A DNA stretch of 64,000 bases, taken from contig JAJCZJ010000126.1 of assembly GCA_029262455.1 (NCBI GenBank), positions 39,696 through 103,695 of the forward strand, written 5' to 3'. The position numbers and the translations under genes are program-made. Source of the stretch: Deltaproteobacteria bacterium (lineage in GTDB: Bacteria; Desulfobacterota; Binatia; HRBIN30; CADEER01). The notes under the pieces were generated by a model. The model did not search any database. It saw only the letters and a program-made list of their open reading frames with translations, and was not told the origin of the DNA. This document shows, piece by piece, positions 45,063 through 49,287 of this stretch (its first letter is position 1; each line of letters starts with the position of its first letter).

Positions 45063-46436
45063 ATGTCTCTGAAGCTTCGATCCTGGGTCTTTGCGGCCTT
45101 TTTATTGTTGACGCTAGCGCTGGTGGCGTATGGCATAGCGCCGAATTTGGGGCCTCGCACAGACGTGTCCTTGGGTCCGGATGGCTGTGACCTCTTTGAT
45201 TGCTCGAGCGATCCGCAAGATGTTGTGTTGATCGACGTCGACGGAGATGGCTCGATCGACGCGGTGACAGCCAACAACGGCAGTGACGACGTCACAGTGC
45301 TGTTGAATAACGGCTCTGGCGGCATGGACCTCGTTGCGACCTTGGCCGCCGGCTCCGGTCCGTCCGCCGTGGGTGCCGCGGATTTCGACAATGACGGCAA
45401 CGTAGACCTGGCGGTAGTCAACGTCTCGGACTCCTCGGTGAGCCTTTTTTCCGGCAACGGTGACGGTACTTTCGGAGCACCGTCGACTGTCGCTGTGGGG
45501 CTGTTTCCGGAGGATATTGTCGTCGCTGATTTTGATGAAGATGGCGATAGCGATTTCGCCACCTCGGACCTTTTTGGCGACACCGTGACGATTCGCCTGG
45601 GCAACGGCGACGGTACGTTTGCCGATGCGATCTCGATTGTGCTGGCCCCGTTGCCGAGCGGTATGGCGGGCCCGGTTGCGATGGCATTGGGCGACTTCGA
45701 TGAGGATGGGAATACCGATATCGCGGTGACTCTCGATGACGATTTCCCCGGACAAGTGGCAATCTTACTGGGCGACGGGACTGGAAACTTCACTGAACAG
45801 CCGAATCGACTCTCGGTCGGCGACTCGCCATTGGGCATCGCCGTTGGCGAACTGAACGGCGACGGCAACGAGGATCTCGCGGTCCCGAATTGGTTCGACG
45901 ACACCGTTTCGGTCCTGTTCGGCAACGGCGACGGCACGTTTGCCGCCGGGCCCGTGTTGCAGGCCGGTTTGGCGCCCGAAGATGTCGTGATTGCCGATCT
46001 CGATAGAGATGGGGCGGCCGATATTGTGACTCTTGACGGGGTCGGTTCCGAGACTGCGGACGGGTTGCTGGTCGTGATTCCAGGCAATGGCGACGGCACC
46101 TTTGCGGCAGCGGCAACCTTCGACGTCGGAGCGGGGCCCAGTGCGGTCGCTGTCGCCGACTTGAACGGCAGTGGGGCGCTTGATGTGGTCACCACTCATT
46201 TCGATTCCAATGACCTCGCCGTCTTGCTCAATCAGGTGGGCTCGAGTGGCTGTACGGGTGACTGTAATGGCAACGGGGCGGTGTCGATCAGCGAACTGGT
46301 CCTAGGTGTCAATATTGCCCTCGGCGTCCGTGAGGCGGCGGATTGTCTTGCCATGGATCGCGATGGCAGTGGGACAGTGAATATCGGAGAATTGGTCGCG
46401 GCAGTAAATTCGGCACTCGGCGGCTGTCCGGGATAG
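45063..46436 (+). CDS. Exported FG-GAP/VCBS repeat (integrin-like beta-propeller) protein with C-terminal double EF-hand/dockerin-like tail
   Basis: ATG 45063 after GGAGGAG; signal peptide; repeated DFDNDGNVDLAVVN / GNGDGTF units; tail CTGDCNGNGAVSISELVLGVNIALG...GCPG. Confidence 0.88.
   Translation: MSLKLRSWVFAAFLLLTLALVAYGIAPNLGPRTDVSLGPDGCDLFDCSSDPQDVVLIDVDGDGSIDAVTANNGSDDVTVLLNNGSGGMDLVATLAAGSGPSAVGAADFDNDGNVDLAVVNVSDSSVSLFSGNGDGTFGAPSTVAVGLFPEDIVVADFDEDGDSDFATSDLFGDTVTIRLGNGDGTFADAISIVLAPLPSGMAGPVAMALGDFDEDGNTDIAVTLDDDFPGQVAILLGDGTGNFTEQPNRLSVGDSPLGIAVGELNGDGNEDLAVPNWFDDTVSVLFGNGDGTFAAGPVLQAGLAPEDVVIADLDRDGAADIVTLDGVGSETADGLLVVIPGNGDGTFAAAATFDVGAGPSAVAVADLNGSGALDVVTTHFDSNDLAVLLNQVGSSGCTGDCNGNGAVSISELVLGVNIALGVREAADCLAMDRDGSGTVNIGELVAAVNSALGGCPG
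46251..46436 (+). other. Cys-framed tandem EF-hand (dockerin-like) domain, copy 2
   Basis: CTGDCNGNGAVSISELVLGVNIALGVREAADCLAMDRDGSGTVNIGELVAAVNSALGGCPG. Confidence 0.8.
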
Positions 46437-46726
46437 GATTCAAACCGCTTAATCGAGGGCCGAAGAAGGCCTGGAAGTAGTGTTTTTTGTTGAAAACGCC
46501 GGTACGCCGGTGAGAACCAACTATTAATTGCGAGTTGCCCGACCCTGGACAGCTGGCCATCGGGGAGATTTGCCTTTTGACACAGAGTGGACGTTGGGAT
46601 AACAGGGGTGAAGATTTTTTCCTCGACATGGGTGCTGGGGTCGTAGAAGAGGGGCGCGTCGCGCCCGCAGCTTTGGGATTTGGAGAGACTCCCGACTGCG
46701 GCGGACAGCGCCGAGGAGGCTTAGGA

Positions 46727-47656: not shown

Positions 47657-47751
47657 TCTTGATTGTAGGGCGAAAATAGACTTTTAAGACGAAGTGAAGC
47701 GGCCGCAAGGGCGGCAAAGTAGGATCAATCAAATTTGTGAGGGAGGATTTT

Positions 47752-49287
47752 ATGAGAAGGATTTCAACTTGCTTGAGCCTGGCCGCTCTATCGTTGGCCT
47801 TGGTTACAAGCGCGGCATTCGGCCAAACGATTACCATTGGGACGATCGAGGGCGCCGGTTCTGTCGACGTCACGTTGGCAACAAACGGTGAGACGATCGC
47901 CGGAACCGAGAACGACATTGTCTTCGGACCGGAACTTACGGTTGCTATCCGGACCAATCCGGACACGATGTTGCCGGAGCCCGATTGCACGAGAAACGCG
48001 GCGATCGGCCGCGAAGCGACAAACTTCGCTTTCAATCCGCCGGGTTGTTTGGATGACGCAGGTGTTGACTGCACCTCGGTCAAGGCGCTGGTACTGTCGT
48101 TCTCGAACCTGACTGGCATTGCCGATGGTTCGGCGCTGTATAGCTGCAACATTGAAGTCGTCGGAGGCACTGCTCCGGGAGAATATCCGCTCGGTTGTGA
48201 GAATCCGGGTGGATCCAGCCCCGATGGGGATGATATCCCGACGACCTGTGAGGACGGTTCGGTAACCGTGCCTGATGTTCCGGTGGCTGAAATCGCAATC
48301 AGCGATGCGACTGGCGAAATCGGCGGCACTGCGACCATCGATATCTCTCTGAATCTATTGGATTCAGCTGCGGTCGTGGTTGCGACAGAGAACGAGTTCA
48401 CCTTCCCAGCCGGTGCGCAGCCGTTCGAGGCAGGCATCGACGAGGCGACGATGGAACCGTTCTCATCGTGTAGCTTCAATGCTGCGAACGGCCGTGAAGC
48501 GAGTAATTTTGCCTTTACTCCGGCGGGTTGCTTCTCGGATCCGGACGTTGCCTGTACTTCGGCGAAGGCCCTCGTATTGTCGTTCTCGAACCTGACTGGC
48601 ATTGCGGACGGCGCTGTTCTGTACTCTTGTGACTTGGCACTCGGCATGCCTGCGGGTTCGGCCGCTGCGACTTCGGGTGCGACGACCGGAACATTCCCGG
48701 TTGTTTGTTCCGCACCGGGAACCAGCGATCCAGACGGTGTCTCGCTGACAACGCTCTGTGTGGATGGGTCCGTAACCATCGAGCAGCCTGTACCGACTGC
48801 GACTCCGACGATGATCGGAATCGCGAGAGCCGAGCTGGTTGGTGGAATCGGCATCGATGACGTTGAAATCATGATCACGAATCTGAGCGGGATGCTTCCT
48901 GCCGCTGGTCGGATCCGGATTGACGATGAAGAGATCGATTACGGGAGTGTTGAGGATCTCGGAGATGATACGTTCGTTCTTCGGGATGTTGTACGCGGTG
49001 TGAATGACACGGACGCAGCGGCTCACGATGCGGGAGCGACTGTCTTCATTCTCTCGGCTTCGGCAACTCCGACTCCGACTGAGGTCATCACCGACACTCC
49101 TGCGCCGGCGACCGACACTCCGACGGAAGTCCCGGTTACGAACACCCCAGTCCCAACAGCAACCCAAGTACGCAACGACGCCGATGACGATTCCTGTGCG
49201 ATCGTGGCGCCGGAGACCAGTTCCTCCGGTTGGATGCTGATGCTGCCGATGGCAGGCCTAATCTGGCTGCGCAGACGCAGTCGCTGA
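47752..49287 (+). CDS. Exported protein with two cohesin-like repeats, a third small beta domain, Pro/Thr stalk and C-terminal anchoring tail
   Basis: ATG 47752 after GGGAGGA; signal peptide; internal duplication (ALVLSFSNLTGIADG... twice); TPTPTEVITDTPAPATDTPTEVPVTNTPVPT stalk; DDSCAIVAPETSSSGWMLMLPMAGLIWLRRRSR tail. Confidence 0.78.
   Translation: MRRISTCLSLAALSLALVTSAAFGQTITIGTIEGAGSVDVTLATNGETIAGTENDIVFGPELTVAIRTNPDTMLPEPDCTRNAAIGREATNFAFNPPGCLDDAGVDCTSVKALVLSFSNLTGIADGSALYSCNIEVVGGTAPGEYPLGCENPGGSSPDGDDIPTTCEDGSVTVPDVPVAEIAISDATGEIGGTATIDISLNLLDSAAVVVATENEFTFPAGAQPFEAGIDEATMEPFSSCSFNAANGREASNFAFTPAGCFSDPDVACTSAKALVLSFSNLTGIADGAVLYSCDLALGMPAGSAAATSGATTGTFPVVCSAPGTSDPDGVSLTTLCVDGSVTIEQPVPTATPTMIGIARAELVGGIGIDDVEIMITNLSGMLPAAGRIRIDDEEIDYGSVEDLGDDTFVLRDVVRGVNDTDAAAHDAGATVFILSASATPTPTEVITDTPAPATDTPTEVPVTNTPVPTATQVRNDADDDSCAIVAPETSSSGWMLMLPMAGLIWLRRRSR
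48095..48605 (+). repeat. Internal gene duplication marked by an identical 28-mer TGTCGTTCTCGAACCTGACTGGCATTGC
   Basis: 28-mer at 48095-48122 and 48578-48605; encodes LSFSNLTGIA in both cohesin-like repeats. Confidence 0.9.

What the first reader, a model, noticed from the sequence alone, without database searches (positions are those of the whole stretch)
45063..49287. Candidate non-cellulosomal cohesin/dockerin-like surface assembly encoded by three consecutive secreted proteins
Seen directly: three consecutive same-strand genes with signal peptides. The first (FG-GAP beta-propeller) and second (beta-rich) end in nearly the same ~60-aa tail, C-x-GDCNG(D/N)G-V-I-ELVLGVNIALG...C-x-A-D-x-(N/D)G-V-I-ELV-AVN-AL-GCP. 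This is a duplicated 12-residue Ca-binding loop with a helix after each loop, the layout of dockerins. The third has two ~150-aa beta-rich repeats that resemble cohesin domains in length, strand pattern and position on an anchored stalk, followed by a Pro/Thr stalk and membrane-anchor tail. No glycoside hydrolase is nearby. Inference: the anchored two-repeat protein may act as a mini-scaffoldin that captures EF-hand-tailed propeller proteins. Pairing and cohesin homology are unproven.
Basis: partly seen in the sequence, partly recalled or inferred. Interest (0 to 1): 0.82.

Follow-up and report, generated by a model that had tools for sequence, protein, structure and literature searches.

The report
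Cohesin–dockerin surface scaffold in Binatia
An uncultured bacterium carries a three-gene set that looks like the snap-together parts of a cellulosome (a cell-surface anchor, an adaptor and a client), used mostly for proteins that do not degrade cellulose, and the same genome has about 155 such plugs in all.

Summary
The third gene's two repeats are cohesin modules: AlphaFold model (repeats mostly pLDDT 85-95), best Foldseek hits cellulosomal and archaeal cohesins, and a profile of their relatives finds PDB cohesins at E 7e-9. The tails are dockerin-like; 10 of 29 relatives match Pfam Dockerin_1. The trio reads as client (propeller + dockerin), adaptor (cohesin + dockerin) and anchor (two cohesins, stalk, MYXO-CTERM-like tail). 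The operon is conserved in 14 of 16 genomes of the same order of Candidatus Binatia. A census gave about 155 dockerins and 30 cohesins. Large dockerin sets, cohesins and a myxosortase-like protease occur in the same 16 of 119 class genomes (protease in one more). Clients are mainly beta-propellers, proteases and other enzymes; one glycoside hydrolase was seen. Non-cellulosomal cohesin–dockerin systems are known (ANME archaea, "planctosome", Stygibacter); this is a new, unusually large variant with a new kind of anchor and a conserved core operon.

The parts
45063..46436 (+). P1: secreted FG-GAP beta-propeller with C-terminal dockerin-like tail (putative client)
   Evidence: ORF; Pfam FG-GAP_3 E 1.1e-38; SD 45049-45055; orthologues upstream of P2 in 14 genomes
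46251..46430 (+). dockerin-like tail of P1 (two Ca loops, 4 Cys)
46727..47656 (+). P2: secreted cohesin-fold module + dockerin-like tail (putative adaptor)
46817..47452 (+). cohesin-fold domain of P2 (not detected by the cohesin profiles used)
   Evidence: AF2 mean pLDDT 89.2, pTM 0.77; Foldseek hits 1-24 all cohesins, best TMt 0.75 to 4uyq
47474..47653 (+). dockerin-like tail of P2
   Evidence: helices 261-271 and 293-305 in model
47752..49287 (+). P3: secreted two-cohesin protein with stalk and surface anchor (putative anchoring scaffoldin)
47839..48270 (+). cohesin repeat 1 of P3
   Evidence: 167 bits to profile A2
48298..48780 (+). cohesin repeat 2 of P3
   Evidence: 146 bits
48892..49044 (+). 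small beta domain resembling PF23666 Rcc01698_C (381-431 of P3), present in the window protein and P0002 among the 16 aligned relatives
49045..49179 (+). Pro/Thr-rich stalk
   Evidence: sequence; pLDDT below 50 over residues 438-491
49174..49284 (+). MYXO-CTERM-like sorting signal: DDDSC motif, hydrophobic helix, RRRSR
609..1787 (+). another secreted Pro/Thr-rich protein with C-terminal dockerin-like tail in the same window

Best explanation
The trio is the conserved core of a non-cellulosomal cohesin-dockerin surface assembly. All three proteins are exported by Sec. P3 is held in the cell envelope by its Cys-TM-Arg tail, is probably processed by a myxosortase-like CPBP protease and sent to the surface by type II secretion, and presents two cohesins on a Pro/Thr stalk. 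P2 is an adaptor with one cohesin and one dockerin: its dockerin plugs into P3 (or another cohesin) and its cohesin takes the next dockerin. P1, a beta-propeller, and many of the other ~150 dockerin-bearing proteins are clients. Shown here: cohesin fold of the P3 repeats and of P2, dockerin-type tails, genome-wide numbers, operon conservation, and near-restriction of the anchor signal to cohesin proteins. Inferred: that these dockerins bind these cohesins, which binds which, Ca dependence, surface location, and the purpose (most likely displaying propeller-type binding proteins and hydrolases on the outer surface or in a matrix).
For: Fold: P3 model's top PDB hits are the ScaA cohesin dyad (3l8q, E 2.9e-9), with the A. 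fulgidus non-cellulosomal cohesin (2xdh, TMt 0.74) and CaCohA2 (6kgc, TMt 0.79) close behind; P2 hits 1-24 are all cohesins. Sequence: repeat profile A2 finds PDB cohesins, best E 6.9e-9; P3-family profile A1 still ranks them first, best E 6e-4; Cohesin is the only Pfam family the repeat relatives match, 6/19; P0014 (42% identical) carries PF00963. Dockerin_1 matches 10/29 tails, and 15 places in the genome pass its cut-off. Census: 155 dockerin-like and 30 cohesin-like domains; anchor tail on 3 of 6 cohesin-only proteins and 0 of 152 dockerin proteins (Fisher p 3e-5); the anchor profile hits only three places genome-wide at E<=1e-3, two of them cohesin proteins. Co-distribution in 119 class genomes: large dockerin sets, cohesins and the myxosortase-like protease in the same 16 order genomes, protease in 1 other. 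Operon client-adaptor-cohesin protein in 14 of 16 order genomes. GspD present.
Against: No binding was tested. Window tails alone do not reach Dockerin_1's cut-off, and the tail profile finds calmodulin-type EF hands first in PDB. P3 repeats alone do not match PF00963. The co-distribution is one clade, so it is a single evolutionary event. About five times more dockerins than detected cohesins leaves partner choice open. MYXO-CTERM and myxosortase models are below cut-off.
Confidence: 0.72

Rival explanations
1. The dockerin-like tails are disulfide- and Ca-stabilised caps or self-packing modules that do not bind cohesins; the cohesin-fold repeats are adhesin or stalk domains. Both families expanded in the same clade for separate reasons.
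For: More tails match EF-hand models than Dockerin_1 and calmodulins come first in PDB; four conserved Cys (95-98% in the census) are an extra stabiliser; many dockerin+cohesin chains could pack in cis.
Against: Co-distribution in the same 16 of 119 genomes; conserved operon; helix positions beyond the Ca ligands are conserved across about 155 tails; tails occur at C-terminal and at N-terminal or internal positions (59 versus 96 in stop-to-stop frame coordinates), so they are not a simple end signal.
Confidence: 0.14
2. It is an ordinary cellulosome for plant polysaccharides in a new host.
For: Architecture (client, adaptor, anchor) is that of cellulosomes; one GH10 and one SASA esterase carry the tail.
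Against: Among 152 dockerin proteins scanned, propellers (FG-GAP, Lactonase, Kelch, PQQ, Sortilin) and proteases or other enzymes dominate; GH10 is the only glycoside hydrolase in the lists, which show the 25 commonest families per batch. No carbohydrate-binding module on P1-P3.
Confidence: 0.04
3. P1-P2-P3 form a self-contained adhesion complex by ordinary protein contacts, and the genome's other dockerin proteins are unrelated to it.
For: The operon is conserved as a unit while other clients vary.
Against: P1/P2 tails are of the same family as the genome-wide tails, and at least two further cohesin proteins carry the anchor.
Confidence: 0.1

Closest known systems
Clostridial/ruminococcal cellulosome (primary, adaptor and anchoring scaffoldins; reviewed in PMC12484212)
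   Same: Cohesin fold, dockerin-type duplicated Ca loops, adaptor with cohesin+dockerin, anchored cohesin protein, dockerin clients without their own anchor
   Different: Clients are mostly propellers, proteases and other enzymes, one GH seen; anchor is MYXO-CTERM-like, not SLH or sortase; tails carry four conserved Cys and mostly Glu at loop position 12; no CBM on the scaffold; different, diderm-type lineage
'Planctosome' of freshwater Planctomycetes (Nemodlikiaceae, PMC6461901)
   Same: Predicted non-cellulosomal set with anchoring (cohesin), adaptor (dockerin+cohesin) and dockerin peptidases
   Different: Different anchor (lamin tail domain) and cargo; its authors compare it to a simple cellulosome, whereas here there are about 155 dockerins and an order-wide three-gene operon
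ANME archaeal dockerin/cohesin proteins (PMC9012536) and their SRB partners (PMC10553843)
   Same: Many dockerin/cohesin proteins outside cellulose degradation; scaffoldin-like proteins with a dockerin and up to 5 cohesins
   Different: Clients there include ABC substrate-binding proteins; no client-adaptor-anchor operon of this kind in the passages read; different lineage
Archaeoglobus fulgidus non-cellulosomal cohesin (2xdh)
   Same: Structural match to a P3 repeat, TMt 0.74
   Different: Archaeal; 14% identity over the match
Ca. Stygibacter (Cloacimonadota) cellulosome-like complex (PMC8542988)
   Same: Cohesin scaffold with its own C-terminal surface signal, dockerin hydrolases
   Different: One giant scaffoldin with CBMs and another kind of C-terminal domain; here several smaller cohesin proteins with MYXO-CTERM-like tails

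Membership tests
Cohesin (PF00963) | Cohesin fold | tested here: met
   P3 repeats and P2 N-domain: Foldseek top hits cohesins, TMt up to 0.79 and 0.75
Cohesin (PF00963) | Sequence match over Pfam cut-off | tested here: inconclusive
   Not for window P2/P3; met by homologous domains linked by iterated profiles: 6/19 repeat relatives match at E<=0.01, three genome loci over cut-off, P0014
Cohesin (PF00963) | Binds a dockerin | not testable with these tools
   No complex prediction or experiment available
Dockerin (PF00404) | Duplicated 12-residue Ca loop, each followed by one helix, about 60 aa | tested here: met
Dockerin (PF00404) | Sequence match over Pfam cut-off | tested here: inconclusive
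   Window tails below; 15 domains in the genome over the cut-off, six of them overlapping tail-family hits; 10/29 tails match at E<=0.01
Cellulosome | Anchored and adaptor scaffolds plus dockerin clients | tested here: met
   Domain architectures (assembly itself not shown)
Cellulosome | Clients are mainly plant-polysaccharide enzymes; scaffold carries CBM | tested here: not met
   One GH10 in the cargo lists; no CBM on P1-P3
MYXO-CTERM / myxosortase system | Cys motif + TM helix + Arg-rich end (TIGR03901) | tested here: inconclusive
   Tripartite pattern conserved; TIGR03901 12.7 bits for P3, 19.6 and 20.0 for relatives versus cut-off 20
MYXO-CTERM / myxosortase system | Cognate CPBP protease in the genome | tested here: inconclusive
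   One CPBP protein, best NCBIfam hits MrtP/MrtC/Mrt_core (Mrt_core 94.2 bits, cut-off 100), EExxxR and HxxxN motifs in its sequence; co-occurs 16/16 versus 1/103

The most novel reading that the evidence does not exclude
Because P2 and 17 other reading frames in this genome carry a cohesin and a dockerin on one chain, they could join head to tail into long chains growing from the P3 anchor, making a modular extracellular protein matrix that presents over a hundred different propeller and enzyme clients: a general-purpose plug-in cell surface rather than a degradative machine.
Probability: 0.3. Interest if true: 0.82.

Novelty: new variant of a known kind. Interest (0 to 1): 0.64.

Why it matters
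Non-cellulosomal cohesins and dockerins have been known for two decades, often as scattered modules of unclear purpose. Here a whole order of uncultured bacteria has a conserved client-adaptor-anchor operon, about 155 dockerins in one genome, and an anchor that links cohesin scaffolds to the recently described myxosortase pathway. It gives a defined three-protein set in which non-cellulosomal cohesin-dockerin pairing can be tested directly, and a possible new source of cohesin-dockerin pairs for protein display. The cohesin in P2, seen only by structure, suggests that cohesins are under-counted in such genomes.

Tried and rejected
PDB sequence search with P3 alone found nothing convincing (best E 0.29); a family profile was needed. 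The tail profile against PDB returned calmodulins, which does not separate EF-hand from dockerin, so Pfam on many members was used as well. The genome-contig scan gave only five loci. A simple sorting-signal role for the tails was rejected because many are N-terminal or internal. A canonical cellulosome was rejected on cargo. Promoter/terminator scan was uninformative. The correlation of dockerin and cohesin counts (Spearman 0.83) was not used as proof, because the dockerin counts are first-look candidates and also track genome size (0.87).

Full report
What was checked. The three genes exist as described, each with a good Shine-Dalgarno site and a hydrophobic N-terminus. P2 starts at 46727. 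P1 is an FG-GAP propeller. P1 and P2 end in dockerin-like tails. P3 has two repeats, a small Rcc01698_C-like domain, a Pro/Thr stalk and a Cys-TM-Arg tail.

P3 repeats are cohesins. P3 alone matches nothing in Pfam but the small domain. Its 21 relatives include a family with the same plan, and one of them (P0014, 42% identity) carries PF00963. Iterating a profile of the two repeats inside the genome reaches domains that score over Pfam's cohesin cut-off. Nineteen such repeats match only one Pfam family, Cohesin (6 of 19). Their profile finds cellulosomal cohesins in the PDB, best E 6.9e-9; a profile of the P3 family alone still ranks cohesins first (6e-4), though two members of that family match Pfam Cohesin themselves. 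The AlphaFold model has most repeat blocks at pLDDT 85-95, and Foldseek returns the ScaA cohesin dyad, the Archaeoglobus cohesin and CaCohA2.

P2 holds a hidden cohesin. Its model is confident (pLDDT 89.2, pTM 0.77). The first 24 PDB matches are all cohesins from cellulosomes; the first other protein comes at E 0.017. So P2 is cohesin + dockerin, like an adaptor scaffoldin. P2 relatives are numerous (490 proteins by homology, which includes tail matches; several named sources are Candidatus Binatia).

The tails are dockerin-like. They have two loops of dockerin layout, each followed by one helix, no helix before the first loop, and near-symmetric halves (15/22 identical in P2). They differ from textbook dockerins in having mostly Glu at loop position 12 and four conserved Cys. 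Ten of 29 match Dockerin_1 and 18 match EF-hand_1.

Genome-wide picture. The window lies in a 7.34-Mb, 127-contig genome assembly. The census of fetched stretches gave 155 dockerin-like domains in 152 reading frames and 30 cohesin-like domains. Seventeen reading frames carry both by these profiles, and P2 adds one more. The anchor signal is on four proteins: three are cohesin proteins without dockerin, none is a dockerin protein (Fisher p 3e-5); the fourth is a subtilase-like protein with FG-GAP-like repeats as read from its sequence. Pfam scans of the 152 dockerin proteins show beta-propellers of many kinds, subtilases, a penicillin amidase, GDSL lipases, RHS and thrombospondin repeats, and one GH10 (the tables list the 25 commonest families per batch, so rare families may be missing).

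Distribution. In 119 genomes of the class, cohesins occur in the 16 genomes of the window's order and nowhere else; dockerin sets of 18 or more occur in the same 16 (12 others have 1-7 weak tails). A CPBP protease that resembles myxosortases occurs in the same 16 and one other; in the window's genome its best named relatives are MrtP, MrtC and the Mrt core model, just below cut-off. In 14 of the 16 order genomes the gene order is propeller+dockerin, then P2, then a cohesin protein with one to three detected repeats; G007 has P2 followed by a cohesin protein without a recognised P1, and G071 shows no full P2. These genomes share ancestry, so this is one evolutionary event kept over time, not 16 independent ones. 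Two relatives are named 'Candidatus Binatia bacterium' and 'bacterium' in the public records.

Mechanism. By analogy with cellulosomes, dockerins plug into cohesins; P3 is the anchored base, P2 an extender, P1 and other tailed proteins the clients. The anchor and protease resemble the MYXO-CTERM/myxosortase system, in which the Cys motif is proposed to be lipidated, the tail is cut, and the protein is proposed to reach the surface by type II secretion (PMC11980579); a GspD secretin is present. Binding, lipidation, surface location and purpose are inferred.

Known context. Cohesins and dockerins outside cellulosomes are established (Peer et al. 2009, as cited in PMC9012536). ANME archaea, Ca. 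Stygibacter and the 'planctosome' are the nearest systems (PMC9012536, PMC8542988, PMC6461901). The Binatota genome paper mentions neither module, and literature searches pairing dockerin with Binatota or with MYXO-CTERM found no papers; only open-licence papers could be searched. I therefore class it as a new variant of a known kind.

Noticed in passing
window 609-1787 (+): Another dockerin protein in the window: secreted, very Pro/Thr-rich, ending in the same dockerin-like tail.
   Followed up: partly
L167:1594-5721 (G000:C69): A 1376-aa reading frame, subtilase-like with FG-GAP-like repeats as read from sequence, bears the MYXO-CTERM-like tail itself, with no dockerin or cohesin detected; it is the one anchored protein outside the cohesin set.
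   Followed up: partly
L111 (G000:C86:116433-116798): The myxosortase-like CPBP protease gene lies close to a PilT-like ATPase gene (the latter judged from its sequence only).
   Followed up: partly
window 48892-49044: Rcc01698_C-like domain, named for a phage/GTA-type tail protein family, inserted between cohesins and stalk in P3 and in P0002 among the 16 aligned relatives.
   Followed up: no
L052/L054 (G000:C14:114688-117318): A 1009-aa reading frame with one dockerin and four very similar cohesins: a primary-scaffoldin-like protein.
   Followed up: partly
L101:4217-10825 and L102:3853-9774 (G007, G052): Reading frames of about 2,000 aa with 5-7 cohesins in other families of the order, more cohesins than any protein detected in the window's genome.
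   Followed up: no
L068:8982-15197: Dockerin-bearing RHS-repeat protein with a thrombospondin C-terminal region; its role was not examined.
   Followed up: no
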